Source: Sphingopyxis alaskensis RB2256
Lineage (GTDB): Bacteria > Pseudomonadota > Alphaproteobacteria > Sphingomonadales > Sphingomonadaceae
Direction of reading: 5' to 3'
Assembly: GCF_000013985.1 (NCBI RefSeq)
Contig: NC_008048.1
Coordinates: forward strand, 372,001-436,000
DNA length: 64,000 nucleotides
Under the pieces are notes generated by a model. That model did not search any database, was not told the DNA's origin, and saw only the letters and a list, made by a program, of their open reading frames with translations. Of the stretch, positions 22,545 to 51,605 are shown piece after piece; position 1 is the stretch's first letter; each line of letters begins with the position of its first letter. A program made the translations under genes and the position numbers.

Positions 22545-23678
22545 ATGGATAGATCCCCTAACCTCAAGGTATCGAAGTCAAAAACCTACTTCGAACTCCT
22601 TATCATCATGAACGTCCTTCTTCTTGCCGCTTCAGCAGCCCTCTTGATCAACCAGTCCGCTCCGGTCGCCGAACCACGCGTCGTCACTGCGCGAGGCGAT
22701 CTTGGCGCAGATGAACGTGCGACAATCGACCTGTTCCGGAACGCACGCGAGTCCGTCGTCTTCATATCGACACGGCAGCGGGTGGCCGATTTCTGGACAC
22801 GCAATGTCTATAGCGTGCCGCGCGGTTCCGGCTCGGGTCTCGTATGGGACGAGGCCGGCCATATTGTCACAAATTTCCATGTCATCGAGGGCGCCTCCGA
22901 AGCGCAAATCCAGCTTGCTGACGGTCGCCAGTTTTCCGCCACGCTGGTCGGTGTTAGCCCACAACACGATCTTGCTGTCCTGAAAATAGGCGGTGCGGGC
23001 TTCACTGCGCCCGCGCGGGTGCCAATCGGCACGAGCATCGATCTGCAGGTGGGGCAGAATGTCTTCGCAATTGGAAACCCGTTCGGCCTAGACTGGACCC
23101 TGACCAAGGGGATTGTTTCGGCGCTGGATCGTTCGCTGCCGAATGAAAATGGCCCCGACATTCGGCACCTCATCCAGACCGATGCCGCCATCAATCCAGG
23201 CAATTCGGGTGGTCCGCTGCTCGATTCCGCAGGCAGACTGATCGGGATCAATACCGCAATCTATAGTCCCTCCGGGGCATCGGCAGGAATCGGCTTTGCC
23301 GTGCCGGTTGATACGGTCATGCGGGTCGTGCCGCAGCTCATTTCGGAAGGGCGCTATACGCGGCCCAGCCTTGGCTTTGAAAGCGATGACGATATAAACG
23401 ATCGGCTCAAACGCGCTTCGGGGATCGAAGGGGTTTTCGTCCTGCGGGTGGATCCCGGGTCCTCGGCGGATCGCGCCGGTCTGGTTGCTGCGCAGCGTAC
23501 GAGGCGCGGTGTCGCTCCTGGAGACATCGTTACCGCTCTGAACGGCAAACCCGTTTCCAGAGTCGGCGATCTGCTCGCCCGACTAGACGATTTTCGGGTC
23601 GGACAAAGCGTCGAACTTACGCTGATGCGCGGCGGCGAAGAGCGAATGGTCAGGCTCGAACTCGAACCGGGAAGCTGA
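22545..23678 (+). CDS. degP: HtrA/DegP-family periplasmic serine protease
   Basis: A 377-residue membrane-anchored S1C protease. One N-terminal helix (about 17-37) anchors it. The catalytic triad is His112 (TNFHVIEG), Asp142 (QHDLAVLKI) and Ser221 (GNSGGPLL). One PDZ domain follows at about 270-375, so the layout is closer to DegS than to two-PDZ DegP. It degrades misfolded envelope proteins. In known LHR/tLST loci a degP gene is the terminal member, and here too it is the outermost island gene. It is convergent with the Hsp20 genes across a shared terminator. Confidence 0.88.
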   Translation: MDRSPNLKVSKSKTYFELLIIMNVLLLAASAALLINQSAPVAEPRVVTARGDLGADERATIDLFRNARESVVFISTRQRVADFWTRNVYSVPRGSGSGLVWDEAGHIVTNFHVIEGASEAQIQLADGRQFSATLVGVSPQHDLAVLKIGGAGFTAPARVPIGTSIDLQVGQNVFAIGNPFGLDWTLTKGIVSALDRSLPNENGPDIRHLIQTDAAINPGNSGGPLLDSAGRLIGINTAIYSPSGASAGIGFAVPVDTVMRVVPQLISEGRYTRPSLGFESDDDINDRLKRASGIEGVFVLRVDPGSSADRAGLVAAQRTRRGVAPGDIVTALNGKPVSRVGDLLARLDDFRVGQSVELTLMRGGEERMVRLELEPGS

Positions 23679-23689
23679 TGCACGAAGAA

Positions 23690-23717
23690 GGGCCGGTCCC
23701 ATCGGTGAGACCAGCCC
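23690..23717. terminator. Shared hairpin between convergent degP and hsp20
   Basis: GGGCCGGTC pairs with GACCAGCCC (one mismatch) around a 10-base loop. It lies in the 51-bp gap between convergent genes and could end both transcripts. There is no long T tract, so confidence is moderate. Confidence 0.5.
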
Positions 23718-23729
23718 TCCTGTCTGCCA

Positions 23730-24230
23730 TTAACCGGCGTTGATCGGGATCGTCTTGCGTCCATGTGCCGCTTCTGCGGTACGCGGAACCGTAACGGTCA
23801 GAACACCATTGCGGAAGGCCGCCTCGACCTTGTCCTCATCGATCTGCGAAGGCAGGCCGATGCGACGCTCGAAGCGGCCATAGCTACGTTCGGAATAGCC
23901 GCGTTCCTCGTCGCTGGTTTCGGACTTCTTTTCGCCCCGGATCACCAGCTGGTGATTGTCCAGGCTGATTTCGATGTCCTTTTCCTCCATGCCCGGCAAC
24001 TCGGCCGTGACACGGATTTCCTTGTCGTTCTCCGACAGCTCGACCCGCGGCAAGCCAAGGCTGCGCCCGATGGACGGCAGCGAGGGCATTGAAAACCCGC
24101 GAAACATGTCGTCGAACAAGCGATTGATATCTCGATGAAGCGACATCACCGGATGATCGACCCGCTCCTCCTGCCGGGGAGCGATGTCCTGGCCCTGGCT
24201 TTTCCAGGGAATGAGATCGCGAATAGCCAT
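23730..24230 (-). CDS. hsp20: Small heat-shock protein, Hsp20/alpha-crystallin family
   Basis: A 166-residue holdase chaperone beginning MAIRDLIPW. The alpha-crystallin domain spans about residues 60-155, with the ELPGMEEKDIEI strand region, RSYGRFERRIGLP and the GVLTVTVPR motif near its end. It ends with a KTIPINAG tail carrying an IxI-like anchor. The start at 24,230 has AGGAGG 9 bases upstream. It follows a second Hsp20 gene 103 bases upstream on the same strand and is probably cotranscribed. Its N-terminal region resembles that of the Hsp20 at 30,315. Confidence 0.9.
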   Translation of the reverse strand: MAIRDLIPWKSQGQDIAPRQEERVDHPVMSLHRDINRLFDDMFRGFSMPSLPSIGRSLGLPRVELSENDKEIRVTAELPGMEEKDIEISLDNHQLVIRGEKKSETSDEERGYSERSYGRFERRIGLPSQIDEDKVEAAFRNGVLTVTVPRTAEAAHGRKTIPINAG

Positions 24231-24333
24231 CTCGACATTCCTCCTATTTTCCGACTGGTTCAGGCAAAGCTTCGTCAAGCGGGGCAGGTGCGGTGGCACC
24301 CACCCCGCCGAGGATTTGCCCGATGATTTGGAC

Positions 24334-24810
24334 TTAGCCCGCCTTGTCTTCGGGCAGCTGCGGCGTGTCGTCATTGACATGCTCGCGGCTTCCGATGGCG
24401 ATTTTGCGCCGCTTGAGCGATTCCGGGACGATCCGCTGGAGCGAAATCGTCAACATGCCGTGCTCGTAATCCGCATCGCGCACTTCGACATAATCGGCCA
24501 GCTGGAACCGGCGCTCGAACGCGCGGGCAGCGATACCGCGGTGAACGAATTCAACACCGTCTTCGTCCTTCTCGATCTTCTGACCGGAGATGACGAGCTG
24601 GTTCTGATGTGAAGTGATGTCGATTTCGTCCGGACGGAAGCCGGCAACCGCCAGAGTGATCCGGTAGCTGTCCTCGCCGGTGCGAACGATGTCGAAGGGT
24701 GGGTAGCCATCCTGCGTCTCGGCGCGGAAGCTGTTCTCGAGCGCATCGAAGAGCCGATCGAAACCGACCGTCGAGCGGCGATAGGGGGTCAAATCAAATG
24801 CAGTCCTCAT
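24334..24810 (-). CDS. ibpA: Small heat-shock protein, Hsp20/IbpA-type
   Basis: A 158-residue IbpA/IbpB-type Hsp20, beginning MRTAFDLTPYRRSTVGFDRL as enterobacterial IbpA does. The alpha-crystallin domain covers about residues 40-135 (SYRITLAVAGFRPDEI; GMLTISLQR). IbpA-type proteins bind aggregates and hand them to ClpB and DnaK. The start at 24,810 has AAGGAGG 9 bases upstream. First gene of a two-gene Hsp20 unit; the 425-bp gap upstream must carry its promoter. Confidence 0.9.
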   Translation of the reverse strand: MRTAFDLTPYRRSTVGFDRLFDALENSFRAETQDGYPPFDIVRTGEDSYRITLAVAGFRPDEIDITSHQNQLVISGQKIEKDEDGVEFVHRGIAARAFERRFQLADYVEVRDADYEHGMLTISLQRIVPESLKRRKIAIGSREHVNDDTPQLPEDKAG

Positions 24811-25235
24811 TTCCAAATCCTCCTTGTTGAGCAATCTGGGCATGAGAGGCGCCGGGAACCAAGAGCCGACGCCCTCTGTCCAACCGGCATACCAATGAAT
24901 TTCGTCGTAGGGGCTGCAACATGTCTTGCCATCTGGTGGTCCTACCTTTGAAAAGTGTCAGGAGAATTCTTGAGGTCCCCGCTGACGTGGAATGTACACA
25001 TAATCAGAGCGCATTGAGCGGTAGCTTGAGGTAGCGTATTCCTTTTGACGTGATGGCGTGGACGCGTGAAGCGATCTGCAGTACCCATTTTTGCGTACAT
25101 TGATTCGCAAAACACGATTGGGGAATGCTCTTCATGCAAGCAAGAGCCCTGGAAGCATTCCCCCGCCGGTTGCTCCTTGCAGGCGATCGCGCCAGACAAC
25201 AGCGTGCACAACACCTCATCGCAGGATAAGAGCGC
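24811..25235. other. Divergent promoter region between ibpA and the HPF/sigma-like gene
   Basis: No gene is supported in this 425-bp stretch. CTTGAG occurs twice on the plus strand (near 24,969 and 25,025) but without a matching -10 element at proper spacing. The region is expected to hold promoters in both directions. I could not define them. Confidence 0.4.
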
Positions 25236-26333
25236 ATGGCAATCTTCATCAGCCTGTCAGTCACAGACAAAACTACATCGAAACAGGATGCGGCAACCGT
25301 GCGCACGGCGTTGCTGGAGGAAGCTGTCGGGGCCCTTCAACCAATTTTCGGTGCACGCGGAGCATCTGCTACCCGTATTCAGGCTGTTCTTGGTCGCTCG
25401 CCGGACAAAGATGCGACATTCAGCCTGTCGGTGCATTTGCATTTGCCGGGCCAGAGGATCGTGGCCGTTCACAGTAAGGGAGACGATCTGCGTTCATTGG
25501 CCAGGGACGTCATCGACAAGCTAACATCTGCTACTCGCAGGCATTTGGAAAGACTGGCCCATGGTTCCGAATTCGCCCGCAAAAGGCGGCGCGAGCGTCT
25601 CTACGAGATCACGACCGGGGCCGATCAGCGTCCTGAAAGGGAGCGCAGCCTGGTAGAGGCGAGACTGGCCGAAATCCGGCCCAAGTTGGAAACAGCTGCC
25701 AGGCGTGAATTGGCCTATCTGCGTGCCGTGAGCAAACTTCCAACCGGCTATCCTGAAGCCGCCGATATCGTTGACGAAGCCATCATGCGCGTCATTGCGA
25801 GCGATCATGGGGTCGTGGATGCCGGGGAATTAAAGATTGCCGCCTTGCGCGAACTCTTCGCGGTGATCGACGCGGAAATCGCCGCTCAGCAGATTTCGAT
25901 GTCGGCTATACCGCTAGACAGCGAAGTGCCTCAAGATGCAGAAGATGAAGCGGAGGCTATGGTCGAAGAGGAATTTTACGAATTCTATCAGCCCGACGAC
26001 CATGTCACTTTGGCCGATGTCCTGCCAGTTGAGCTCTCGCAGACCAAAGTCGCGCTCGATGAGATGCACGTTGCAGGCGTGGTCGCGGCTCTGCGCGACC
26101 TGCCGAATCTCTGGCGCAGGGTGTTCGTCTTGCGCCAGCAAGATCTCTTCGCACCGAAGCAGGTTTCGGAAGTGGTCGACCGCGCGCTCGATGAGATTGA
26201 AGATATTTTCGAAAAGGTATCCGCCTTTCTGGATGCGCGCCTCGCCGAGTGGGGTGCCGACTCGTGGGAAGAAATTTTCCGAAGCAAAGGTTGCCGCTGC
26301 TGCCGTCAGGCACCGATGCGTACCGGGGTATGA
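25236..26333 (+). CDS. Fusion of a HPF/RaiA-like domain with a sigma-factor-like region
   Basis: A 365-residue protein I do not recognise as a named family. Residues 1-110 have the alternating pattern and length of a ribosome hibernation-promoting factor (an alpha helix, then beta strands such as FSLSVHLHLPGQRIVAV, then a long helix RDVIDKLTSATRRHLERL). Residues about 150-190 resemble sigma region 2 (helix, then YPEAADIVDEAIMRVIA). Residues about 285-345 resemble region 4 (VVAALRDLPNLWRRVFVLRQ then a second helix pair). Two short acidic stretches separate them. The stop codon overlaps the cardiolipin synthase start by 4 bases, so the genes are coupled. The domain reading is inference from pattern; fold prediction would test it. 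Confidence 0.55.
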   Translation: MAIFISLSVTDKTTSKQDAATVRTALLEEAVGALQPIFGARGASATRIQAVLGRSPDKDATFSLSVHLHLPGQRIVAVHSKGDDLRSLARDVIDKLTSATRRHLERLAHGSEFARKRRRERLYEITTGADQRPERERSLVEARLAEIRPKLETAARRELAYLRAVSKLPTGYPEAADIVDEAIMRVIASDHGVVDAGELKIAALRELFAVIDAEIAAQQISMSAIPLDSEVPQDAEDEAEAMVEEEFYEFYQPDDHVTLADVLPVELSQTKVALDEMHVAGVVAALRDLPNLWRRVFVLRQQDLFAPKQVSEVVDRALDEIEDIFEKVSAFLDARLAEWGADSWEEIFRSKGCRCCRQAPMRTGV

Positions 26334-27766
26334 ACATTCCTGAAACTACGTCGTTTAGCTGGATGATATTTTCAATCGCGGTGATCGCTGCGATTGCCAC
26401 GGCCAGCCACGCGATCATCCACAAGCGCGACCCGCGATCGGCGACCATCTGGCTGCTAGTGGTTGCTCTTGTCCCTCTAGGCGGCTCACTTTGCTACCTT
26501 TTATTTGGGATAAATCGGGTTAACCGCAAAGCAATGCGGCTACGCGCGGCGCGCCCAGCGAAAAGCGAACTTTCCAATCTAGGTTCGGCGGGCATGGATT
26601 TGCCGCCTCATCTGGCCAGTCTTGCGCGTCTCGGGCGAGACGTGTCAGGCAAAGAACTGTTGCCCGGAAATCGCTGCACCCCCCTTTTTGGGGGCACAGA
26701 GGCCTACCCGCAAATGCTTCAGGCGATTTGCGAAGCGAAGCATTCTATCGCCCTTGCCTCGTACATTTTCGAGGGCAAGGGGATCGGGGCGCTTTTCGTC
26801 GATACCCTCGCGCAAGCGCGGTCGCGCGGAGTGAGCGTCAAGGTCCTGATCGATGATGCCTATGCCAGGTTATCCAACTCGGACGCCTACGGAGCATTGC
26901 GGCTTCACGGTATTGATGTCGCCCTGTTCAATCCCCCTGTGATACCGGCACGCCTGCACGGGTTGCATCTGCGCAACCATCGCAAACTGCTCATCGTTGA
27001 CGGGTACCGGGGCTTTACCGGCGGCATGAACATCCATAGGCCCTATTGGTGTCCCAAGGCCCCGGAAAGCGCTTTCCGCGATCTGCACCTTGAGGTTTCG
27101 GGTCCGGTCGTCGGGCAAATGCGGGAAACCTTCGAGCGGGACTGGTACGATAGCAAGGAAGAAGAGCTGGACGAAAGCTTCTGGACTGGCAAATCGGGCG
27201 GTCCGATCACCGACGGATTTAGCCTTGCGCGCGGGATCGAATCCGGACCTGACGAAACGCTGGACCGGATGCGGTGGATTTTCATAGGCGCAATCAATGC
27301 CGCTCAGAAAAAGATTTCCATCCGCACACCTTATTTCCTGCCTGACCAGCCTACTATTGCCGCGCTGGGCGCAGCCGCTTTGCGAGGGGTTCGGGTCGAG
27401 ATCGTGGTCCCGCGAAACAGCGACCATCTGTTCGTGCAATGGGCATCTAAGGCGCATTACTGGCAGATAATCGAACACGGTGTCTGCATTTATGAGCGCC
27501 CCGGCCCGTTCGATCATGGCAAGCTGATGATAATTGACGATGCCTGGGTGTGTGTCGGCTCCGCCAACTGGGATGCGCGTAGCCTGCGCCTGAACTTCGA
27601 ATTCAACCTGGAAATTTACGATCGCAGGCTGGCGCTGGAGCTTGGTGACGATTTCGCCCGAATCAGGTCTGCGTCGAAGAAAGTGAGGCCGACCGACCTG
27701 TCTGACATGCCGTATTTCGTGAAACTGCGAAATGGCTTTGCGCGGCTGTTTTCGCCGATCCTTTGA
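26330..27766 (+). CDS. cls: Cardiolipin synthase (phospholipase D family)
   Basis: A 478-residue membrane enzyme that joins two phosphatidylglycerols into cardiolipin. Two N-terminal helices (about 12-30 and 40-58) precede two PLD domains with HxK motifs: LRNHRKLLIVDG in the first and FDHGKLMIIDD in the second. The start at 26,330 overlaps the previous stop codon (ATGA). A cardiolipin-modifying gene in a stress island fits adaptation of the membrane to heat or solvents. The adjoining kefB gene starts 18 bases after its stop codon. Confidence 0.9.
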   Translation: MNIPETTSFSWMIFSIAVIAAIATASHAIIHKRDPRSATIWLLVVALVPLGGSLCYLLFGINRVNRKAMRLRAARPAKSELSNLGSAGMDLPPHLASLARLGRDVSGKELLPGNRCTPLFGGTEAYPQMLQAICEAKHSIALASYIFEGKGIGALFVDTLAQARSRGVSVKVLIDDAYARLSNSDAYGALRLHGIDVALFNPPVIPARLHGLHLRNHRKLLIVDGYRGFTGGMNIHRPYWCPKAPESAFRDLHLEVSGPVVGQMRETFERDWYDSKEEELDESFWTGKSGGPITDGFSLARGIESGPDETLDRMRWIFIGAINAAQKKISIRTPYFLPDQPTIAALGAAALRGVRVEIVVPRNSDHLFVQWASKAHYWQIIEHGVCIYERPGPFDHGKLMIIDDAWVCVGSANWDARSLRLNFEFNLEIYDRRLALELGDDFARIRSASKKVRPTDLSDMPYFVKLRNGFARLFSPIL

Positions 27767-27784: not shown

Positions 27785-29482
27785 ATGGAAGAACTCTTTT
27801 TCTCTGTGTTCATTCTCTTTGCTTCCATCCTGGTGGCCGGCTTGCTGTTTCATCTCATGAAGGCTCCAACGATCCTGGGCTATATTGCTGTCGGTATTCT
27901 TCTGGGGTCCTCAGTCACCGGATTGTTTCCCGATGGTCCGGCGCTGGACTTCATGGCCGAGGCAGGCATTATCCTCCTGCTGTTCATGGTAGGCTTGGAA
28001 TTTTCGCTTACCGAATTCTGGAGCGACAAGGGCAAAATACTGAAGGCTGGCGCGCTGCAGGGGTTTCTTGTCGGGCTGCCCGTGGGAAGCCTCGTTTGGT
28101 GCCTGGGGTGGGGAATCGCGCCCGCGATCTTGCTGGGCGCATCGGTCGCAATGTCCTCGACCGCATTGTCGGCAAAGCAGTTGGCAGACCACGGGGAATT
28201 GACCACCCGGCACGGGCGTGTGGCCATTTCGGTGCTGGTCTTTCAAGACTTGGCGGCCATTCCACTACTTGCCATGCTCGCGATCTGGCAATCTGGCGGA
28301 CAGCCCGGTCCGGTCGAGATATCGCTCGAAATCCTCAAGGTCCTGGCAATCTTCGCAGTCGCGCTGGTTTTGGCGAGGCCTGTACTCCGCAGCCTGCTGA
28401 TGGCAATCTATCGGCGCGGCAATTCCGAGCTGCTGGTCCTTGCCGCTCTCGCGATTATTGCCATGGCAGCGCAATCCGCCCATCTCGCCGGAGCTTCCGC
28501 TGCTCTGGGTGCATTTCTGGCGGGACTTATTTTGGGTGAAAGCGATGTCCGGCACCGGATCGAGGAAGACTTGCGGCCTTTTCGGGACGTTTTCGCCAGT
28601 ATTTTCTTCGTCTCGATCGGCTTGCAGCTGGACCTGAGCCAGCTTGGGAGCAGTCCGCTTGCGGTCCTTGCCTGGCTATTGGTTCTCCTTCCTGCAAAAG
28701 CATTGCTGAATTTTATCGCACTGAAGATATCCGGATCCTCTGCGCGTGATGCGCTGCAGACGGCTGTAATTCTGGCTCATGGTGGGGAATTCGGACTTTT
28801 GCTCCTTTCCGGAGCTCTTACCGCTTCGCTGATATCGACCGAAATGGGCCAGCCACTGCTGCTGGCGCTTGTCGTTTCGATGGGTCTTGGGCCAATTCTT
28901 TTCCGATCTTCGGAAACCATCGCGCGGAACCTCTGCGGCGGGAAATCCGGAATGACCAATCTACCGCAAAGGGAGGAGGTGGAAGTCGCTCGCGAAGTCA
29001 GGGCTTGCATCAATCACATCGTTTTCTGCGGCGCGGACAACCTTGCGCGATCAGCGGCGAGAGCGGTGAGACTGGCAGAACTCGACTTTGTGATGATCGA
29101 ACCAGATTTGAGACTTTATTTGACCGCGCGCGAAGAAGGGCTGCCAGTCATTCTCGGCGACCCGGGTCGCACCGCTACGCTCGAGGCGGCGCGCGCAAAC
29201 GTCGCGGCGGCAATCGTGATAACGAAACCGTTTTCGCAAAGGCAAAACCGGATTGTGGACTGGTTTCTCGAAGGCAACGCTCACGGGAAAATCGTCTTGC
29301 TCGGCACATCTCAGGATAGGGATGAGACGATGCACACCGACCAACGGATCCTGCAGTTAGACCCGGAGCTATATCTGGGAATGGATTTGGCACGTCTGGT
29401 ACTGTCGGCTGTCGATCTTCCTAAAAATGAGATCGAGAAAATTTCCTGCACCTTGACTTCCGATGCTGCAGACCATGCTTGA
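27785..29482 (+). CDS. kefB: Glutathione-regulated-type K+/H+ antiporter (KefB/CPA2 family)
   Basis: A 565-residue antiporter. Residues 1-380 form about 12 membrane helices of the Na+/H+ exchanger CPA2 fold (LLLFMVGLEFSL, FQDLAAIPLL, GAFLAGLILGES). Residues 410-530 are a cytoplasmic RCK/TrkA-N domain (HIVFCGADNLARSAARAVR). KefB/KefC acidify the cytoplasm by potassium efflux during electrophile stress. A kef gene is a constant member of LHR/tLST loci. Third gene in the HPF-like/cls/kefB operon. Confidence 0.9.
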   Translation: MEELFFSVFILFASILVAGLLFHLMKAPTILGYIAVGILLGSSVTGLFPDGPALDFMAEAGIILLLFMVGLEFSLTEFWSDKGKILKAGALQGFLVGLPVGSLVWCLGWGIAPAILLGASVAMSSTALSAKQLADHGELTTRHGRVAISVLVFQDLAAIPLLAMLAIWQSGGQPGPVEISLEILKVLAIFAVALVLARPVLRSLLMAIYRRGNSELLVLAALAIIAMAAQSAHLAGASAALGAFLAGLILGESDVRHRIEEDLRPFRDVFASIFFVSIGLQLDLSQLGSSPLAVLAWLLVLLPAKALLNFIALKISGSSARDALQTAVILAHGGEFGLLLLSGALTASLISTEMGQPLLLALVVSMGLGPILFRSSETIARNLCGGKSGMTNLPQREEVEVAREVRACINHIVFCGADNLARSAARAVRLAELDFVMIEPDLRLYLTAREEGLPVILGDPGRTATLEAARANVAAAIVITKPFSQRQNRIVDWFLEGNAHGKIVLLGTSQDRDETMHTDQRILQLDPELYLGMDLARLVLSAVDLPKNEIEKISCTLTSDAADHA

Positions 29483-29534: not shown

Positions 29535-30176
29535 TCAGTCGTCGGCTAGCCATGGATCGGGCTGTACGTTTGCAAGCGGGAGGTCGCTCAATTCCTTGCG
29601 TAATGTGATGGTATGAGCGTGGACATTATGCGCACCATTGCGCCTCATGATGTCGATTGCGCGTTGCTCCTCATCCGCATTATCCACCCTGACAAAAACT
29701 GCAATGCCGCCGCGATTTATATCATGCTCGATTGCATCGGCATCATCCCGCGTCAGCAAATTCTTGCGAACAAGTTTGGCCAACATCGCTCCTATTCCGC
29801 CGCCAGCAGTACATGCCGCAAGTGCAAGCGGAATTGCACCTCCTGAAGCTATGATGGGTACTCCGGCTGCTAAGGCACCGGTCGCAATCAAGGTTCCAAA
29901 AACGGTTCCGGTGACCGTGGCATGTTCATCCCTGGTCGTTAGGCGCCGCCTCGGAGTCTCGGGGTTATCGACGACCGCGCCCGGATCGGGATAGGTCAGG
30001 CCGAGTTTTTCGATGACCGTATTCCAATCGGCCATGAGGGATATGTCATTGCGGTCCACCCCTGCGGCAACCAGTTGTGTTGCCATTTCTTCAAGAGCGT
30101 TATGATTGTAAACAATTCCAACCACTTCCCGGATTTCAACCGTGTCGACTGTTTGATCATCCTCCCGATCGGACAT
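29535..30176 (-). CDS. Stress-island membrane-associated protein with glycine-rich hairpin
   Basis: A 213-residue protein. The N-terminal 60 residues (EIREVVGIVYNHNALEEMA ... LMAD) resemble the general-stress-protein 17M/YflT-type small domain. The centre (about 90-140) is a glycine/alanine-rich double membrane segment. The C-terminus (AVFVRVDNADEEQRAIDIMR then NGAHNVHAH) resembles the last part of similar alphaproteobacterial hypothetical proteins. It is convergent with kefB. Function unknown; probably envelope stress related. Confidence 0.65.
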   Translation of the reverse strand: MSDREDDQTVDTVEIREVVGIVYNHNALEEMATQLVAAGVDRNDISLMADWNTVIEKLGLTYPDPGAVVDNPETPRRRLTTRDEHATVTGTVFGTLIATGALAAGVPIIASGGAIPLALAACTAGGGIGAMLAKLVRKNLLTRDDADAIEHDINRGGIAVFVRVDNADEEQRAIDIMRRNGAHNVHAHTITLRKELSDLPLANVQPDPWLADD

Positions 30177-30827: not shown

Positions 30828-31220
30828 TTATCCTGCCTTCACCGAAATCTTCCGGGGCGCCAGTTTCTCAGAGCGATGAAGGCGTAAGGTAAGTACGCCG
30901 TCGCGCATCGACGCATCGGTTTTATCGGGATCGAAATCTTTCGAGACCTGGAAAGAGCGCTCATAAGCCGTTGAAACAAATTCGATGTGCTGCAATTCCT
31001 CCTCTTGGGGCATCGAAACCGAAGGCCTTGCCGCGACTGTCAATACGCCGTTCGCAAGCTCGATGTCCAGATCGTCTGAGCTGCATCCGGGCAGTTCGAT
31101 GAGGAGAATTGCTCCGTCAGAGGTTTCGACGATGTCGGTCAAGGGCATCTGGACTGGCTGTGCTTGCTCCGCCTGCTGCGCCAATTTCTCATTGGTCGTC
31201 GTTTCCATGTCGTTACTCAT
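30828..31220 (-). CDS. hsp20: Short Hsp20-family protein
   Basis: A 130-residue Hsp20 with a short N-terminal arm of about 25 residues, rich in glutamine and glutamate. The alpha-crystallin core runs from about 30 to 125 (GAILLIELPGCSSDDLDIEL, TAYERSFQV, GVLTLRLHR). Unusually a cysteine lies in the usual ELPG loop (ELPGCSS). It is the middle of three Hsp20 genes and is probably a co-chaperone forming mixed oligomers. The start has AGGAA at 6 bases. Confidence 0.85.
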   Translation of the reverse strand: MSNDMETTTNEKLAQQAEQAQPVQMPLTDIVETSDGAILLIELPGCSSDDLDIELANGVLTVAARPSVSMPQEEELQHIEFVSTAYERSFQVSKDFDPDKTDASMRDGVLTLRLHRSEKLAPRKISVKAG

Positions 31221-31229: not shown

Positions 31230-31655
31230 CTAACCTGCCTTGATCGCGATCTTGCGCGGCTTGTCGGCGTCGGACAGGCCAGCAGCGATAAAAAGGATGC
31301 CGTTCGAATAGCGCGCTTCGACGTTTTCCGGATCGATCCGGAAAGGCAGCGTCACGGCTCGAGTGAACTGGCCGTAACTCCTTTCACGCCTCATCCAACG
31401 CGCATCATTGCCGCAATCGGGCTGTGCGCGTTCGCCTGAAATCGAAAGCAAATTCTCCTTGACGGTGATGTCGACCTTTTGGGGATTAATGCCAGGCATT
31501 TCGGCGACGATTGCCGCACCTTGCCCGGTCCGCCAGATGTTCAGCTTGGGAAAGGCGGCGGCACTACTTACCCTTGCGGTTGGCAATCCCGACAACCCCT
31601 TTCTCAATATTTCGAAAGGATCGGCCCTGTAAATTCTTGCTGGATAAACCATCAT
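31230..31655 (-). CDS. hsp20: Hsp20-family protein, divergent
   Basis: A 141-residue Hsp20. The alpha-crystallin core (about 35-130) has AAIVAEMPGINPQKVDITV, RRERSYGQFTRAVTLPF and GILFIAAGL, the last being a degenerate form of the usual GVLxVxVP motif. The start at 31,655 follows AGGAGAAGA; the frame remains open upstream without homology. It heads the three-gene Hsp20 operon. A yfdX remnant lies upstream on the same strand, suggesting the original order yfdX-hsp20-hsp20-hsp20. Confidence 0.85.
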   Translation of the reverse strand: MMVYPARIYRADPFEILRKGLSGLPTARVSSAAAFPKLNIWRTGQGAAIVAEMPGINPQKVDITVKENLLSISGERAQPDCGNDARWMRRERSYGQFTRAVTLPFRIDPENVEARYSNGILFIAAGLSDADKPRKIAIKAG

Positions 31656-31819
31656 TCTTCTCCTCTTGGACAACGACTGCCAGCGCGAACGTGTCTGTCT
31701 GGTAGATGCTCCGCGTACCTGGCGGAGGAGTTCTGCAAATTCGCGTTCTGCTTTGCCGCCAGCAATGGTTGCCAATTCGATCGTGCGAATCTGGTTTCAA
31801 AACTGCGCCCCATGGCGGG

Positions 31820-35373: not shown

Positions 35374-35421
35374 TGGACCGGTCTTAAGGTCGCTCTTGAG
35401 AGCGAACTTAGGAGCGGTTTT

Positions 35422-42850: not shown

Positions 42851-43291
42851 TCAGCCAATATGTGCCTCCACCCATTGGCGAAGCGCGGAGGGGGGTAAGG
42901 CACCGGATCGTTGATCGACCAGCCGTCCATTCTTGAATATTAACAAGGCAGGGACGCCCTGCACGCCGTACCGGGCGGCAAGTTCGGGAGCCTTGTCGAT
43001 ATCGACCTTTGCGAACCTGGCGCGCGGTTCGATTGCAATCGTGACCTGGGCAAATGATGGAGCCATGGCGCGGCAGGGACCGCACCACGTCGCCCAGAAA
43101 TCCACAACGACAGGTATGTCGGATCGTGTGATATGGCGATCGAACCTCTGGCCCAGCAGGTCGACGGGCGAACCATTGAACAGCGCCTTGTGGCATTTGC
43201 CGCATTTTGCGGCCTGGGCTGGCCGATCAGGCGGGATAGCGTTGACCGCATCACAATGTGGGCAAACTACCTTGATCTTGTCGGCTTCCAT
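42851..43291 (-). CDS. trxC: Thioredoxin 2-type protein (TrxC-like)
   Basis: A 146-residue protein with an N-terminal zinc ribbon (Cys10, Cys13, Cys30, Cys33) followed by a thioredoxin domain with WCGPC (active cysteines 70 and 73). The cis-proline is in GVPALLI. This is the TrxC layout, where zinc confers redox-dependent holdase activity. A thioredoxin is a standard member of LHR/tLST loci. Located between clpB and dnaJ with gaps of about 40 bases. Confidence 0.92.
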   Translation of the reverse strand: MEADKIKVVCPHCDAVNAIPPDRPAQAAKCGKCHKALFNGSPVDLLGQRFDRHITRSDIPVVVDFWATWCGPCRAMAPSFAQVTIAIEPRARFAKVDIDKAPELAARYGVQGVPALLIFKNGRLVDQRSGALPPSALRQWVEAHIG

Positions 43292-43329: not shown

Positions 43330-45918
<2,589 letters not shown>

Positions 45919-46032
45919 CGCAAAGGGTCTCCAAGCGTAATTACAATTTCAAATGGGACTTTGAGTAGGTACTAGCAGGACATCGAACTCCCGTCTGCTC
46001 AAATATCAACCCGCAACGACGCCAGCCTCTAG

Positions 46033-46598
46033 GCTCAGGACTCATTGCGGCAGCCAGAAGATGACGGTTGCAGCGATACATATGGCGGACATGAAGGTGT
46101 GGGCGCATCGGTCGTAGCGGGTGTGGATGCGTCGCCAGTCCTTGAGCCTGCCGAACATGTTCTCGACCTTGTGGCGCTGGCGGTAGAGGGCTGTGTCGTG
46201 CGGAATGGGGACTTTGCGGTTGTTCTTTGACGGGATGCAGGCGGCTATGCCACGCTCGGCCAGCGCGGCGCGGAACCAGTCGGCATCGTAGCCCCGATCG
46301 GCGAGCAAAGCCCTGACCTTGGGGAAGGCATCTATCATCAGCGCAGCGCCCTTGTATTCGCTCATCTGCCCTTCGCTGAGCAGCATGATCAACGGGCGGC
46401 CCTTGCCGTCGCAGACAGCCGCTCACGATACGGCGATCAGCGACCCGCGGAATGCCGTGCGACAGGGGAAATAGGGCTCGATCCGGCGCATCTGCGCCTC
46501 GCTCAACAACCACAGATCTGACAACAGCACCACCTCCTTGATGCTGCCATTGAATCAACCGATTGCCTCCCGCGCAAGCGATTTAATGGGTCCTGAAC
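46033..46598 (-). mobile_element. Internally deleted IS5-family element (IS427-type), MITE-like
   Basis: The 14-bp ends (GCTCAGGACTCATT and the complement of AATGGGTCCTGAAC) are inverted repeats with two mismatches, flanked by CTAG duplications at 46,029-46,032 and 46,599-46,602. Inside, the minus strand reads WLLSEAQMRRIEPYF, breaks frame near 46,470 (one C missing in a CCCC run), and continues to RIVSG. The sequence then jumps directly to the region before RPLIMLLSEGQMS; about 90 expected codons are missing. The final 116 codons (46,042-46,392) end IAATVIFWLPQ. Non-autonomous, only 566 bp long. Confidence 0.8.
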
Positions 46599-46651: not shown

Positions 46652-46795
46652 GCTTCCTATGGTACGCTCGTATCGCCAGATGACTGTCGAGTCGGCGAGG
46701 ATAGCGGAAACGGCATTGAAATGCGGCTCTCGCGAGTTTACGAACGGAGGCGCAGTCAGCGATTTCACCCGTTCGAAACTTTGATGGAGGTGGTG

Positions 46796-47134
46796 ATGGA
46801 GCAAATTGCCAAAAACGAGTGGGCAGAATTGTGCGATCGCATTAGCAAGCGGTTGCTTGGCCTGCGCGCCGAAATCGAGGTCCAATCGCTGGATTTGGGC
46901 GATCAGATCGAGGCCGAATTTCTTCCAATCCTAGGTATCACCTATGATCACAAAGACGATGTCGTGGTCATCGCCCTTGAGGGGCTTGCTCACCTGATCC
47001 CGCACCCGGTCGATATCCAGACCAAAGGCTACGACGATAATATCGAGGCAGTCCTTATTGTGGACAAGGAAGGTGTGCGGCATCTCACATCATTCCGGGA
47101 GCCGCTTAAGTTGCCACCCCCGCCTGCTGAGTAA
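46796..47134 (+). CDS. DUF5335 family protein
   Basis: A 112-residue soluble protein matching the DUF5335 pattern: NEWAELCDRISKRLLGLRAE, then LDLGDQIEAEFLPILGITYD and DVVVIALEGLAHLIPHP. Function is unknown. The start at 46,796 has GGAGG 5 to 6 bases upstream; the open frame before it is not conserved. First gene of the right-hand stress operon and directly upstream of yfdX. Confidence 0.8.
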   Translation: MEQIAKNEWAELCDRISKRLLGLRAEIEVQSLDLGDQIEAEFLPILGITYDHKDDVVVIALEGLAHLIPHPVDIQTKGYDDNIEAVLIVDKEGVRHLTSFREPLKLPPPPAE

Positions 47135-47188: not shown

Positions 47189-48106
47189 ATGACATTCAGA
47201 AATCTTGCCCATGGCGTTGCCGCCATCGCATTGCTTGCGGCTACGGCCTGTTCCGATAATGCCGAGAAGGCGGCGGACGGACAGGAAGCTTCGGCTAGCG
47301 CAACCGATACGGATCAGGCTGCGGGCGGCGCCACGGCCGAGGATCAGGTGCAACTCGGAACTCTGCTGAAGGAAGCGGTTTCCGCTCTCGATGAAACGCA
47401 GGCGGCTATCAGCGCCATTGACGCGGGCAATAATAAAGGGGCGATCGACGCTCTGGCCAGGGCCACGGGCAAACTTGAGATCATCCTGACGCGCGAACCC
47501 AACCTGGCACTTGCTCCGGTGGCCAATTCGGTCATCGAACATGATGTTCTTGCAACGCCAGGCGATGTCAAGGCGCTCTCCGACCGGATCGAGGATCTGA
47601 CTGATGAGGGACGTTTGCAGGAAGCGAGGCGGCTTATGGAAGGCCTCGCAAGCGAGATGGTTATCAGGACCAGCAACCTTCCGCTGGGTACCTATCCTGA
47701 TGCCATCAAACGCGCGGCCGCACTGCTGGACGAACAGAAGCCTCAGGAGGCCAAGCTCGTCTTGCTAAACGCCCTGAGCACCATTGTCGTGACCGAAACC
47801 GTAATTCCCTTGCCGATCGTTCGTGCAGAGGCAAGCGTCGAGGCTGCGCGGGTCGTTGCGGCAAAGGAGAACCGCACGGAACAAGACAACCAGGCAATCG
47901 CTGCGGAACTGCAGAAGGCCCGCGAGCAAATCGAGATGGCGCAAGCGCTCGGTTATGCAACCAAGAAGGATCTTGACGATCTGCAGGACGCGATCAAAGA
48001 ACTTGAGCGAGAGACTGGCGGGGGCAATGCTGCAACTCGCTTATTCGAACGCATCAAGGGGCTTTTCGGCAAGGCCCGCGAAGCAGTACAGCCGACAAAG
48101 AATTGA
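47189..48106 (+). CDS. yfdX: YfdX-family periplasmic stress protein (lipoprotein)
   Basis: A 305-residue exported protein. The signal MTFRNLAHGVAAIALLAATAC has a lipobox ending at Cys21. The YfdX domain (about 60-290) includes TYPDAIKRAAALLDEQKPQE and LSTIVVTETVIPLPIV, then helical segments with many lysine and glutamate residues. YfdX proteins are periplasmic holdase-like factors found in LHR/tLST loci, often in pairs with hdeD. Here too hdeD follows. The remnant at 31,820 is a second member. Confidence 0.9.
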   Translation: MTFRNLAHGVAAIALLAATACSDNAEKAADGQEASASATDTDQAAGGATAEDQVQLGTLLKEAVSALDETQAAISAIDAGNNKGAIDALARATGKLEIILTREPNLALAPVANSVIEHDVLATPGDVKALSDRIEDLTDEGRLQEARRLMEGLASEMVIRTSNLPLGTYPDAIKRAAALLDEQKPQEAKLVLLNALSTIVVTETVIPLPIVRAEASVEAARVVAAKENRTEQDNQAIAAELQKAREQIEMAQALGYATKKDLDDLQDAIKELERETGGGNAATRLFERIKGLFGKAREAVQPTKN

Positions 48107-48203
48107 GAGCTATACCCTGGCGGTGCGTTATGCAATGAAGGCAGCGTGCCGTCAGAAATATTGTCTTCGTTGAATTCCAATCTCAACGTATGGGGCTATC
48201 GAT

Positions 48204-48824
48204 ATGGCAACACTGGCACATAAAATCCCATTCCCGGTCTGTAGTCTAGTAGGAAACTGGTGGACTTTCGTTTTGCGCGGTGTGCTTGCGCTGATCCTTG
48301 CGGTGCTCGCGGTGCTGATGCCTGCCAGCGCCTTGCTCGGGCTGACAATCATCTTCGGTGCCTTCTCGATGGTAGACGGAATATTCTCGCTTATCGCGGC
48401 TTTTCGCAACATCCGCGCGGGTGAGAAGTGGGGTTGGCTGGCATTCAACGGCGTGGTCGGCATCGGTACTGGTATTGTTGTGCTGATTACTCCGATGATG
48501 GCCAGTTTCGTGCTTTCGCTGTTCCTTTGGTGGATGATCGCATTCTGGTCGTCTGCCTCGGGCATCGCCCAGATCGTGACCGCCATTCGGCTGCGCAAGG
48601 AAATCAAAGGCGAGTTTTGGCTGGGGCTAGGGGGTCTGTTGTCCCTTGCGCTGGCCGGCTTCGTAATCTGGATGCTCTTGACTGCTCCCGTCGAGACATT
48701 CCTCGCCTTGGGCTGGGTCCTCGCGTTCTACGCCGCGATGTTCGGAACTGTCATGCTGCTCCTTGGCTTTCGCTTGCGGCGCGCGGCGAAGGCGGATGAT
48801 ACAGGCGTACAGCCGGCGAGCTAG
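48204..48824 (+). CDS. hdeD: HdeD-family membrane protein (DUF308)
   Basis: A 206-residue protein with six membrane helices arranged as three duplicated DUF308 pairs. The first begins NWWTFVLRGVLALILAVLAV and the repeat signature occurs again near GWLAFNGVVGIGTGIVVLI. HdeD is an acid-stress and envelope protein and a core LHR/tLST gene. It lies 97 bases after yfdX and is likely in the same transcript. Confidence 0.9.
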   Translation: MATLAHKIPFPVCSLVGNWWTFVLRGVLALILAVLAVLMPASALLGLTIIFGAFSMVDGIFSLIAAFRNIRAGEKWGWLAFNGVVGIGTGIVVLITPMMASFVLSLFLWWMIAFWSSASGIAQIVTAIRLRKEIKGEFWLGLGGLLSLALAGFVIWMLLTAPVETFLALGWVLAFYAAMFGTVMLLLGFRLRRAAKADDTGVQPAS

Positions 48825-48934: not shown

Positions 48935-49555
48935 ATGACGGCAAAGGGGGCGATGGAGGGAAAAAGGCCGCGCATTCGTGAGATCGTATGGCTCGCTGGC
49001 ATCCTTGCCGCGTTGGTCTTGGGATATGCGCTCTACCACCAGCTCTATGTCGGCGCGTCCAGCTTTCCTTTCGTGCAGGAAACTATCCTTGTCTTCCTTG
49101 GCGCTCTCGCGACGATCTTTCTTACCGCGATGCTGCTCAACCGCCAGACCGAGCTCGAGCTCAGCAAGGAGGCCCGCGTCCATCTGTTCGACCAGAAGAA
49201 CTCGGTTTACATGTCGGCGATCGAAAAGGTCGCGGAAATCGCCGAACAACGCGATCCCGATCCGGCTCTCATCGATGAATTGCGGGTTATCGGACACAAA
49301 CTGGCAGTGATCGCCAGTCCCGAGGTGATCAAGTCCTTCCAGTCGGTGCTCGACAAGCTTATACGCGGATTACGGGACGGAAACCTGACCAATGCCGACG
49401 CAGAAGAGGTGATGCACGCCGTCGCCGAGCTGACCATCGGAATGCGATCCGACATGCTTGACGAGATCGGGAGCGCCAAGAATGACACCGCACAGGAACT
49501 GATCCGCCGCAACTCTCGGCAGATGGAACGGCTCGATGATCTGGACGAAGCGTAA
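48935..49555 (+). CDS. Membrane-anchored helical protein, unknown function
   Basis: A 206-residue protein with two membrane helices (about 16-34 and 48-66) and a long cytoplasmic helical C-terminal half (HLFDQKNSVYMSAIEKVAEI ...). The helical tail is charged and probably oligomerises. No known family is recognised. It lies between hdeD and the NDUFS4-like gene, in the same direction. Confidence 0.6.
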   Translation: MTAKGAMEGKRPRIREIVWLAGILAALVLGYALYHQLYVGASSFPFVQETILVFLGALATIFLTAMLLNRQTELELSKEARVHLFDQKNSVYMSAIEKVAEIAEQRDPDPALIDELRVIGHKLAVIASPEVIKSFQSVLDKLIRGLRDGNLTNADAEEVMHAVAELTIGMRSDMLDEIGSAKNDTAQELIRRNSRQMERLDDLDEA

Positions 49556-49589
49556 CGGCCAGCAACGATAAAGCGTAAAGGACCTGAAC

Positions 49590-50132
49590 ATGCACAGAGG
49601 CCATAATCGTCCGCCGCGCCTATCGAAGCAGCCCGGCACGAATACTATTTCGGCCGATGTTCCGATGGCAAAGATCTACCAGGAACCGCGCTCCACGCTT
49701 CAGGGCGGGCACCGCCCGCAACCGTGGTACCTCGAGTTCGAGGCGAGAAGACCTTTGGGCCGCGACGTCTTCACGGGCTGGATCACCAATGATGATCCAT
49801 ATCGCCATATCCGTGTTCAGTTTCCTGACCGGGACAGCGCTATCGCATTCGCCGAGCGACAGGGGTGGGAATACAGGGTCATCCACAATTCGGAGTCGCG
49901 GCATCTCAGTTCTAAGATCGACCAACTCTATCGTGGCTCTGATGCGCCCGGGAACTGGCCGATACGATGGTCAGGAGAAGGCAAACAGATTTCCCAAAAC
50001 CGGCTGTATCGAGGTGCGCAAGCCGGCGAGCGGGCTGAGCGCGAGAAGGAGTTCGACCCGGTGGATGAAGCGCTGCTCGAAAGCTTTCCAGCCTCCGATC
50101 CGCCGGCATTTACGGGCGCAACAATTGGCTAG
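49590..50132 (+). CDS. NDUFS4-like (ETC complex I subunit) protein with stress-type tail
   Basis: A 180-residue protein. Residues about 25-100 match the NADH dehydrogenase accessory subunit NDUFS4/AQDQ family (AKIYQEPRSTLQGG, WYLEFEARRP, DSAIAFAERQGWEYRV). That subunit normally belongs to respiratory complex I. Here the gene stands alone in a stress island with no nuo genes nearby. It has an extra C-terminal region ending DEALLESFPASDPPAF, a tail seen in other small sphingomonad proteins. Role in stress is unknown. Confidence 0.75.
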   Translation: MHRGHNRPPRLSKQPGTNTISADVPMAKIYQEPRSTLQGGHRPQPWYLEFEARRPLGRDVFTGWITNDDPYRHIRVQFPDRDSAIAFAERQGWEYRVIHNSESRHLSSKIDQLYRGSDAPGNWPIRWSGEGKQISQNRLYRGAQAGERAEREKEFDPVDEALLESFPASDPPAFTGATIG

Positions 50133-50144
50133 GCCAAAAGGTCG

Positions 50145-51096
50145 ATGCAGTCGAAAATAAGCGAGTATCAGGTGTCAAATGTAATCGACGAATTCGAATT
50201 GCAAGCTCTCTCCGTTTCCTCATCCCTGCTTGAAGACGCAGTGCGGATCGTGTTGGTGGTGTTTCTCGCTTCGTTGGCGGCAGCTCTGCTTTCGCGCCTG
50301 ATGCGGCGCATAGAACAGAAGATGACAAGCAAACGAAGTGATCCAGATTCTGTTGGGAGGGTTGCAACTGCATACAGGAATGGTCTGATATTCGGGCGCA
50401 TCGTGATATGGTCAGTTGCCGGGGTGACCTTGCTCTCGATCATGGGCCTATCCATAGCGCATTTGCTGACTGCTGCGGGAGTGGCCGGAATTGCAGCAGG
50501 TTTTGCCGCGCAGAGCCTGGTGAAAGATTACTTTTCCGGATTTATCATACTGCTTGAAGGGCAGCTGCGCGTCGATGACATAGTCGAGATCGGTGGCCAT
50601 ATTGGAGTGGTAGAAGAAATCACGCTGCGAAGCGTTCGTCTGCGCGATTACTATGGCAAGGTGATTTTCATGCCATGTGGGAACATTACCAATGTCGTTA
50701 ACAAGACCATGGAATATTCCAGGTCGGTAATCGATGTCGGTATCGCCTATCGCGAAAAAGACAGACGAGGCGTTGGGCATTATGCACAGCGTTGCCTTGC
50801 AGATGGCTAAGGATCGCGCCTTTGCAGACCGCATAATTGATGAGCCCGAAATTATCGGTGCGGAAGCGCTCGGTGACAGTGCCGTCATATTGCGACTGCG
50901 CCTGAAGGTGACGCCAGGAGCACAATGGGAAGTGCGCAGGGAGTTCTTCCGCAGGATCAAGCAGGCATTCGACGAGACTGGCATCGACATACCATTCCCG
51001 CAACTTACCCTGTATCCGGGGCTCCCGAAAGATGGCCCTGCCCCTCCGCTGAACATCCGGCTTGGACAAACCGAGGCTGCGGTGAAGAATGCTTGA
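50145..51096 (+). pseudogene. mscS: MscS-type mechanosensitive channel, frameshifted
   Basis: Frame 1 (50,145 to about 50,755) has membrane helices near residues 28-48, 80-100 and 107-130 and the MscS pore/beta region (AAGFAAQSLVKDYFSGFIIL; LRVDDIVEIGGHIGVVEEIT; IDVGIAYREK). A run of five A at about 50,756 then shifts the frame. The next frame continues TDEALGIMHSVALQMAKD to the end of the alpha/beta domain at 51,096. Removing one A restores a continuous protein of about 316 residues. This is either a recent mutation or a sequencing error. Confidence 0.8.
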
Positions 51097-51119
51097 AAGA
51101 CGACCGCAAGGATAAACCA

Positions 51120-51605
51120 ATGCTCGCGAATTTTCTGAGATTGCGCAAAATGACACGTGCAGAATGGTCTGCGATGTCCTTTTACGAGAAATTCGAGGAC
51201 GCGATTGTCATCGTTCTCAGCGGAATAATCGCAATCGTCGTGATTGCGGCGGTTTGGTCATTGCTGCGCGAAGTTGTCACAAGCCTTGTCTTGGGCGCTC
51301 TTGATCCGCTCGATTTTGCCACTTTCCAGACTGTCTTCGGAATGATTTTTACTGCTGTGATTGCGCTTGAGTTCAAGCGTTCATTGCTCGTAGCTGCCGA
51401 TAGGGGATTCGGTGTCCTGCAGGTGCGAACGATTATCCTGATTGCGCTGCTGGCAATTGTGCGCAAGTTCATCATTCTCAATCTGGCAGACACGAGCGCC
51501 GCGAAGGTCGCCGCGCTTTCGGGGGCTGTGCTGGCACTTGGTGCGGTATTCTGGCTCGTTCGCGATCAGGATCGGCAGGAGCGGCTTGAGCAAGCACAGG
51601 AATAG
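51120..51605 (+). CDS. psiE: PsiE family phosphate-starvation-inducible membrane protein
   Basis: A 161-residue protein with four membrane helices (about 28-48, 62-80, 95-115, 128-147) and the PsiE pattern FEDAIVIVLSGIIAIVVIA, ALEFKRSLLVAAD and VRTIILIALLAIVRKFIIL. psiE is a regular member of LHR/tLST loci, usually near kefB and degP. Last intact gene of the plus-strand stress operon. The start at 51,120 has AAGGAT upstream. Confidence 0.85.
   Translation: MLANFLRLRKMTRAEWSAMSFYEKFEDAIVIVLSGIIAIVVIAAVWSLLREVVTSLVLGALDPLDFATFQTVFGMIFTAVIALEFKRSLLVAADRGFGVLQVRTIILIALLAIVRKFIILNLADTSAAKVAALSGAVLALGAVFWLVRDQDRQERLEQAQE

What the first reader, a model, noticed from the sequence alone, without database searches (positions are those of the whole stretch)
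22545..51605. Expanded stress-tolerance (LHR/tLST/TLPQC-like) island in a sphingomonad, with a full DnaK-DnaJ-GrpE-ClpB set
The gene set HtrA, Hsp20, Cls, KefB, YfdX, HdeD, Trx, MscS and PsiE matches the transmissible heat-resistance loci described in gammaproteobacteria. Here the ClpG/ClpK unfoldase is replaced by ClpB. A complete KJE-ClpB disaggregation machine is encoded in one operon, in order clpB-trxC-dnaJ-HATPase-dnaK-grpE. With five Hsp20 genes and a GroEL remnant, the locus looks like a portable, self-sufficient protein-quality-control system. I am not aware of this exact composition being described.
Basis: partly seen in the sequence, partly recalled or inferred. Interest (0 to 1): 0.9.

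Follow-up and report, generated by a model that had tools for sequence, protein, structure and literature searches.

The report
Mobile chaperone and stress-tolerance gene island
This stretch of a sphingomonad chromosome is a horizontally moved cluster of stress genes that carries a second, complete protein-disaggregating machine (ClpB with DnaK, a J-protein and GrpE), a new variant of the heat-resistance islands known from gut and hospital bacteria.

Summary
In detail: five Hsp20 genes, HtrA, Cls, KefB, YfdX, HdeD, PsiE and a collinear clpB-trxC-dnaJ-HATPase-dnaK-grpE block. The genome has second copies of dnaK and clpB. The island has moved between genera: Tsuneonella suprasediminis carries window 24142-52016 in blocks of 94.6-98.5% DNA identity, while the two genomes' other ClpB and DnaK copies are only 80% and 83% identical. 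A 17-bp repeat of a tRNA-Met end and a nearby integrase suggest a ~63-kb element; no empty site was shown. Gene content is hybrid: ORF25236, KefB, HdeD, PsiE and HtrA (68%) resemble the gammaproteobacterial tLST; grpE, dnaK, dnaJ, HATPase, Dps and DUF5335 resemble islands on six sphingomonad plasmids. The J-protein forms one clade with plasmid-island J-proteins; ClpB and DnaK do not and sit among presumed housekeeping genes of other genera. The HATPase is a histidine-kinase core with Glu for the acceptor His. Verdict: new variant of the tLST kind; protection is inferred, not tested.

The parts
21010..21026 (+). left attachment-like repeat, identical to the last 17 bases of tRNA-Met at contig C2:456132-456208
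   Evidence: exact match; 0 in 100 shuffles even with 2 mismatches
21767..22336 (+). transposase-type ORF (rve integrase core) at the left end
   Evidence: Pfam rve_3/rve
22545..23678 (+). HtrA/Deg-type protease, tLST type
   Evidence: Trypsin_2 and PDZ; 68% to HtrA of the Klebsiella tLST
23730..24380 (-). Hsp20 (a)
   Evidence: PF00011 1.9e-25
24334..24843 (-). Hsp20 (b)
   Evidence: PF00011 5.6e-17
25236..26333 (+). ORF25236, homologue of the tLST protein between trx-GI and hdeD-GI (orf11 by recall)
   Evidence: no Pfam hit; 36% to that protein; 277 plasmid records, all tallied as gammaproteobacterial genera
26249..27766 (+). cardiolipin synthase (Cls)
   Evidence: PLDc_2 x2, PLDc_N
27785..29482 (+). 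KefB/KefC-like antiporter
   Evidence: Na_H_Exchanger and TrkA_N; 49% to tLST KefB-GI
29535..30176 (-). ORF29535, unknown, conserved in sphingomonad plasmid stress islands
   Evidence: 52-53% in 6 of 6 plasmid islands
30315..30815 (-). Hsp20 (c)
   Evidence: PF00011 2.9e-19
30828..31220 (-). Hsp20 (d)
   Evidence: PF00011 6.4e-14
31230..31775 (-). Hsp20 (e)
   Evidence: PF00011 8.6e-19
32489..33199 (+). Crp/Fnr-type regulator
   Evidence: HTH_Crp_2 1.6e-09; homologue in 5 of 6 plasmid islands
33424..33960 (+). Dps (ferritin-like)
   Evidence: PF00210 8.5e-25
34261..37688 (+). IS110-type transposase, then IS66 genes; the IS66 part is absent in Tsuneonella
   Evidence: Pfam; gap 35335-37911 in the alignment
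38461..38997 (-). grpE
   Evidence: PF01025 3.1e-34
39015..40946 (-). dnaK, second copy in the genome
   Evidence: TIGR02350 973 bits, cut-off 823
41007..41768 (-). histidine-kinase core (DHp-CA) with Glu in place of the acceptor His
   Evidence: HATPase_c; alignment; fold match
41875..42807 (-). J-protein, DnaJ plus DnaJ_C, no zinc-finger hit
   Evidence: tree
42851..43291 (-). thioredoxin TrxC
   Evidence: NF008229 151 bits, cut-off 125
43330..45918 (-). clpB, second copy in the genome
   Evidence: TIGR03346 1394 bits, cut-off 1232
46032..46598 (.). insert 113 bases upstream of clpB, absent in Tsuneonella; overlaps a transposase-like ORF (45941-46558)
   Evidence: alignment gap; no Pfam hit for the ORF, transposase label from recall
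46721..47134 (+). DUF5335
   Evidence: PF17269 1e-43
47189..48106 (+). YfdX
   Evidence: PF10938 5.9e-43
48204..48824 (+). HdeD-like (DUF308)
   Evidence: PF03729; 54% to tLST HdeD-GI
48935..49555 (+). ORF48935, unknown
   Evidence: no Pfam hit; 93% in Tsuneonella
49590..50132 (+). NDUS4-domain protein
   Evidence: PF04800 7.5e-17
50145..51096 (+). MscS, split over two frames
   Evidence: Pfam MS_channel parts in two frames; single frame in L009
50925..51605 (+). PsiE
   Evidence: PF06146 1.9e-26; 46% to tLST PsiE-GI
51720..52010 (-). GroEL C-terminal remnant
   Evidence: tblastn 63% over 97 aa
52386..54720 (+). IS21-type istA and istB
56957..63461 (-). element backbone: SSB, SLOG-family protein, ArdC-type anti-restriction protein, ParB

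Best explanation
A horizontally acquired stress-tolerance island of the tLST kind, inside what looks like a ~63-kb tRNA-Met-associated integrative element. It adds a second protein-rescue line to the cell. Shown: gene content, extra copies, recent transfer between genera, hybrid make-up. Inferred: five small heat-shock proteins hold unfolding proteins; the island's own J-protein loads them on DnaK; DnaK passes them to ClpB, which threads them out; GrpE resets DnaK; TrxC keeps thiols reduced; HtrA, YfdX and HdeD serve the envelope; Cls, KefB and PsiE adjust the membrane; Dps guards DNA. In the known tLST one self-standing disaggregase (ClpG/ClpK) does the work; here the Hsp70-dependent machine is carried complete. 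The J-protein is the inherited, island-specific part, while ClpB and DnaK are housekeeping-type genes from another genus. The kinase-like protein between dnaJ and dnaK probably acts by ATP and protein binding and not by phosphotransfer.
For: Gene content. Second dnaK (C2:2167164) and clpB (C2:2523934, 78%) in the genome. Tsuneonella copy in blocks of 94.6-98.5% DNA identity against 80% and 83% between the other ClpB and DnaK copies of the two genomes. att repeat, integrase and tRNA-Met. Flanking element genes of the two only 63-77% alike, so the island moved between elements. Hybrid gene set. ClpB and DnaK nest in 17- and 15-row clades with presumed housekeeping genes of other genera, support 100/100 and 100/99, away from the own second copy. 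J-protein clade 99/97. Glu for His in the window, Tsuneonella and a third near-identical protein (P0002), His in the 8 other homologues aligned.
Against: No phenotype or expression data. No heat-shock sigma site by a strict pattern (pattern recalled, 0.19 expected by chance, so weak either way); four looser matches in the island, none directly before clpB; no more sigma-70-like sites than chance in 38000-47000. MscS is broken, GroEL is a remnant, an insert lies upstream of clpB, so the copy may be decaying or differently expressed. No empty site: in two relatives the gene left of the att repeat is far from tRNA-Met, and in 14 relatives no tRNA or exact repeat lies within the flank held beside that gene. 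The J-protein branch is long (1.07), so its grouping could be inflated by attraction. 'Housekeeping' in the trees is presumed; contexts were read only as far as 1.5-kb flanks, which held no other island gene.
Confidence: 0.72

Rival explanations
1. A decaying island: the genes arrived by transfer but are being dismantled by IS elements and no longer protect the cell.
For: IS110/IS66 in the middle, insert upstream of clpB, MscS frameshift, GroEL remnant, transposase-type ORF at the left end.
Against: All six operon genes and five Hsp20 genes are open; the Tsuneonella copy keeps 23 of the 26 query proteins at 91-100% identity, NDUS4 at 85%, and lacks HtrA and Hsp20(a) on that contig.
Confidence: 0.15
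2. Two independent captures: the KJE-ClpB set was recruited twice from housekeeping genes into unrelated mobile stress islands (window type and plasmid type), and the likeness of the islands is convergence.
For: ClpB and DnaK of the two island types are not one clade: AU p 2.9e-05 and 7e-56. An Azospirillum replicon has a third such cluster.
Against: The J-protein of both types is one clade, and TrxC, HATPase, ORF29535, Dps, GrpE, DUF5335 and YfdX have homologues in all six plasmid islands, which fits one old island with later replacement of ClpB and DnaK better.
Confidence: 0.25
3. An ordinary chromosomal stress region of this lineage.
For: It lies in the chromosome-sized contig.
Against: Operon HATPase at high identity in 1 of 397 family genomes, the own one; GC 0.583 against 0.671; near-identical copy in another genus.
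Confidence: 0.03

Closest known systems
[quoted passage not shown] LHR, TLPQC) of beta- and gammaproteobacteria
   Same: HtrA (68%), Hsp20, ORF25236 (36%), HdeD (54%), YfdX (42%), KefB (49%), PsiE (46%) and a thioredoxin (40%), mobile elements around, against Klebsiella oxytoca pKOX71_2
   Different: No ClpG/ClpK, and no FtsH among the proteins scanned; ClpB plus DnaK, J-protein, GrpE, Dps, Crp, DUF5335, NDUS4; gene order rearranged
Stress islands on large sphingomonad plasmids (pSCLO_2, pNXO2, S. paucimobilis CP065669 and CP065714, S. koreensis CP018821, Sphingobium WTD-1 CP119128)
   Same: GrpE, DnaK, DnaJ, TrxC, ClpB, HATPase, ORF29535, Dps, DUF5335, YfdX, Hsp20 and NDUS4 homologues in 6 of 6
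   Different: ClpB 79-80%, DnaK 72%, J-protein 59-61%, HATPase 32-34%; no HdeD, KefB, PsiE or ORF25236 homologue at E 1e-5 in the stretches fetched; the kinase core keeps its His in the four aligned
Azospirillum brasilense plasmid unnamed2 cluster (NZ_CP059451)
   Same: clpB-dnaK with grpE, Hsp20, NDUS4, HdeD, PsiE and a Deg protease nearby
   Different: ClpB 69%, DnaK 73%; no J-protein, YfdX or HATPase homologue found in the 21.6-kb stretch
Tsuneonella suprasediminis contig NZ_RAHJ01000007
   Same: The same island, three blocks of 94.6-98.5% DNA identity within window 24142-52016
   Different: No HtrA or Hsp20(a) on that contig, no IS66, MscS in one frame, longer GroEL remnant (278 aa, 76% to the own GroEL)

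Membership tests
tLST | core dna-hsp20-clpG set (PMC8290217, section 11 read) | tested here: not met
   ClpB passes the ClpB model (1394, cut-off 1232 bits) and fails ClpG and ClpK (813 and 784, cut-off 1900 bits)
tLST | envelope and oxidative-stress genes (YfdX, HdeD, orf11, Trx, KefB, PsiE, DegP) | tested here: met
   homologues at 36-68% identity of the Klebsiella tLST proteins; YfdX once, not twice
tLST | on a mobile element, xenologues of core genes | tested here: met
tLST | confers heat, pressure and chlorine tolerance | not testable with these tools
   needs strains
ClpB-DnaK bichaperone | ClpB, DnaK, J-protein and GrpE all present and open | tested here: met
ClpB-DnaK bichaperone | ClpB middle domain that meets DnaK | tested here: inconclusive
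   residues 406-525 (borders recalled): 90 of 120 positions identical to the own second ClpB; binding not tested
Sphingomonad plasmid stress island | shared gene set with common descent | tested here: inconclusive
   shared set in 6 of 6; J-protein one clade, ClpB and DnaK not
Histidine kinase | phospho-accepting His in the DHp helix | tested here: not met
   Glu in the window protein, P0002 and the Tsuneonella protein; His in the 8 other rows
Histidine kinase | ATP-binding domain motifs and DHp-CA fold | tested here: met
   Asn, DxGxG and GLGL positions invariant in 10 of 10 rows; Foldseek E 6.9e-13 to HK853, 1.2e-12 to CckA, on a model of mean pLDDT only 67
Integrative element at tRNA | direct repeat of the tRNA end, integrase beside it | tested here: met
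Integrative element at tRNA | empty site in relatives | tested here: inconclusive
   synteny broken at the left end in both relatives read; one of them has a related integrase region at the same tRNA

The most novel reading that the evidence does not exclude
Mobile stress islands of alphaproteobacteria are built around a dedicated, inherited J-protein with its kinase-like partner and small heat-shock proteins, while the costly motors DnaK and ClpB are exchangeable modules, repeatedly replaced by housekeeping copies from other genera. The Glu-bearing pseudo-kinase in the operon would then be a new kind of regulator of an Hsp70-Hsp100 machine.
Probability: 0.4. Interest if true: 0.72.

Novelty: new variant of a known kind. 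Interest (0 to 1): 0.55.

Why it matters
The known transmissible heat-resistance islands rely on a self-standing disaggregase that does not need DnaK. This island takes the other road: it carries the complete Hsp70-Hsp100 machine, cofactors included. If it works, it tests whether a foreign KJE-ClpB set acts in parallel with the host's, and which part (the J-protein?) sets its specificity. Related islands lie on plasmids, four of the six typed as conjugative by PLSDB, among them one of Sphingomonas koreensis and one from activated sludge, so this type of tolerance may travel among water bacteria; sphingomonads are not mentioned in the tLST review read here.

Tried and rejected
The Rhizobium indigoferae plasmid dnaK: no other island homologue in the 21.6-kb stretch. 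HATPase homologues in L010-L025: none has the operon beside it; single weak TrxC or DnaJ matches occur in L010, L021 and L025. Sphingobium indicum and Klebsiella HATPase hits: parts of longer genes in unrelated surroundings. S. parapaucimobilis ClpB, DnaK and J-protein hits: housekeeping surroundings on replicons labelled plasmid. Sphingobium CFD-2 has the closest plasmid HtrA (78.5%), with no island annotated in the 37 kb around it; two Novosphingobium records in that tally were not looked at. Viral contigs scan with ClpB: not followed up. Heat-shock promoter patterns: nothing convincing. Empty-site test: failed because the left flank is rearranged. Rfam: no family at gathering score. A pure 'tLST with ClpB instead of ClpG' reading was dropped. 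One search's comparison script failed and was redone.

Rows dropped: the second ClpB tree used 12 of the 29 near loci L115-L143 plus 18 lower-ranked ones; the match list it drew on was cut off at 79% identity. The DnaK tree used 25 of 27 matching other family genomes, leaving out two partial matches (L237, L238). The J-protein tree used the 29 loci returned besides the own one, i.e. the best of the list. Stops in tree rows were read as X. The islands of CP065714 and CP119128 are in no tree.


Full report
1. What is there. The window lies at C2:372001-436000 of a genome of 3.37 Mb in two contigs. Between 45918 and 38461, all on the minus strand, stand clpB, trxC, dnaJ, a HATPase gene, dnaK and grpE, with gaps of 38, 43, 106, 60 and 17 bases (coordinates; the HATPase start at 41768 is chosen from the sequence and the 253-aa frame of the relative). 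ClpB passes the curated ClpB model and fails those of ClpG and ClpK; DnaK and TrxC pass theirs. The J-protein has no zinc-finger hit. MscS is frameshifted; a GroEL C-terminal remnant lies at 51720-52010.

2. Not the only copies. Of 29 family genomes searched at E 1e-150, only the own one has two DnaK genes; 27 have one and one has none.

3. It is mobile. Tsuneonella suprasediminis holds the island on a 40-kb contig: window 24142-35334 at 98.5%, 37912-46031 at 98.2% and 46599-52016 at 94.6% DNA identity, without the IS66 insertion and without the insert upstream of clpB. Between the same two genomes the other ClpB copies are 80% and the other DnaK copies 83% identical. To the right of the island both have related element genes, but only 63-77% alike, so the island has moved between elements. 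In the window's chromosome a 17-base repeat at 21010-21026 equals the 3' end of a tRNA-Met gene at C2:456132-456208, with a tyrosine integrase gene 177 bases from that tRNA: a ~63-kb element, inferred. An empty site could not be shown: in two relatives the gene left of the repeat lies far from tRNA-Met, and 14 relatives show neither tRNA nor exact repeat in the short flank beside that gene.

4. How rare. The operon's HATPase has a high-identity match in 1 of 397 family genomes, the own one; five more pass E 1e-20 at 30-35%. One of these, G057, has the position of the pNXO2 gene. J-proteins of this type are common (369 of 397 genomes at E 1e-60); two copies appear in five genomes by my reading of the table. 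The HATPase protein cluster P0002 (95% identical to the window's, 6 residues from the Tsuneonella protein) stands for 133 member sequences, so the island may be more common than two strains suggest; these may also be repeats of few strains. In a megablast of 72,556 plasmid records none holds 80% or more of window 38400-51700 in one place.

5. A hybrid. Twenty-six island proteins (MscS as two) were compared with six plasmid islands, one Klebsiella tLST and one Azospirillum cluster at E 1e-5. Only with the tLST: ORF25236 36%, KefB 49%. HdeD (54%) and PsiE (46%) match the tLST and, more weakly, Azospirillum (34%, 38%). HtrA is 68% to the tLST and 38-41% to the others. In all six plasmid islands but not in the tLST: GrpE, DnaK, HATPase, DnaJ, Dps, ORF29535, DUF5335, NDUS4. 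ORF48935 and MscS match none of the eight; Cls only two plasmids weakly, its gene there lying at the cut edge of the stretch. ORF25236 on plasmids is found in 277 records, all tallied as Klebsiella, Enterobacter, Acinetobacter, Escherichia and other gammaproteobacteria. The six plasmids are 311-450 kb; PLSDB types pSCLO_2, pNXO2, the S. koreensis and the WTD-1 plasmid as conjugative and the two S. paucimobilis plasmids as non-mobilizable.

6. Different histories of the parts. ClpB of the window and Tsuneonella islands falls in a 17-row clade (100/100) with 15 presumed housekeeping rows of other genera, among them the second Tsuneonella copy, while the own second ClpB pairs with a same-genus genome (100/100); holding window-type and plasmid-type island ClpB together is rejected, AU p 2.9e-05. 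DnaK gives the same picture, 15-row clade 100/99, AU p 7e-56. The J-protein does the opposite: window type and plasmid type are one side of a branch against 29 other rows, 99/97, though on a long branch. The simplest reading is one old island skeleton in which ClpB and DnaK were replaced. Independent captures remain possible. Sampling leaned towards rows like the island query, so the exact donor is not fixed.

7. The kinase-like protein. It aligns with histidine-kinase cores; ATP-binding positions are invariant in 10 of 10 rows, but where the 8 other homologues have His, the window protein and P0002 have Glu, as has the Tsuneonella protein. The model (mean pLDDT 67) matches DHp-CA structures such as HK853 and CckA, and lower down DivL, which from recall is a kinase-like regulator without the His. 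A phosphotransfer role is unlikely; a binding or sensing role is inferred.

8. Literature. The tLST review PMC8290217 (outline, sections 3, 7 part 1 and 11, and passages read) gives the core as dna-hsp20-clpG and names alphaproteobacterial cases with ClpG-type genes; 'sphingo' does not occur in it, and in the passages found ClpB-DnaK is the core-genome system. PMC8129007 (passages) describes mobile ClpG clusters. PMC10434288 (passages) shows that ClpB, DnaK and an Hsp20 of Sphingomonas melonis TY respond to heat; the word 'horizontal' does not occur in it. Searches (listings only, capped at 20 in 66, 76 and 91) showed no paper on a mobile KJE-ClpB island; most subscription papers and all bioRxiv preprints are outside the library.

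9. Verdict. Real, mobile, and a new variant of a known kind. What is surprising is the complete bichaperone as cargo, the hybrid descent and the altered kinase. Protection of the cell is inferred from the families and from the tested tLST, not shown.

Noticed in passing
L031:10991-14282 (C2:446991-450282): Three tandem tyrosine recombinase genes inside the element, near strawberry-notch-type helicase and toprim/DUF7146 genes; no conjugation domain among the proteins scanned.
   Followed up: partly
window 46032-46598: Insert overlapping a transposase-like ORF 113 bases upstream of clpB, absent in Tsuneonella; it may change expression of the operon.
   Followed up: partly
window 49590-50132; L027, L028, L030, L170, L262, L263, L180: A small NDUS4-domain protein recurs in sphingomonad and Azospirillum stress clusters; role unknown.
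   Followed up: partly
L170 (Sphingomonas koreensis ABOJV plasmid), L263 (Sphingobium WTD-1): These two plasmid stress islands sit beside pentose-phosphate and sugar genes (zwf, gnd, transaldolase), perhaps NADPH supply for the redoxin and thioredoxin genes.
   Followed up: no
L180 (Azospirillum brasilense NZ_CP059451): Another clpB-dnaK-grpE stress cluster with Hsp20, NDUS4, HdeD, PsiE and Deg protease on an 863-kb replicon.
   Followed up: partly
G415:C1:3526000-3538000 (L176): A same-genus relative has a related integrase region next to the same tRNA-Met (73% over 2.9 kb), so this tRNA looks like a used integration site.
   Followed up: partly
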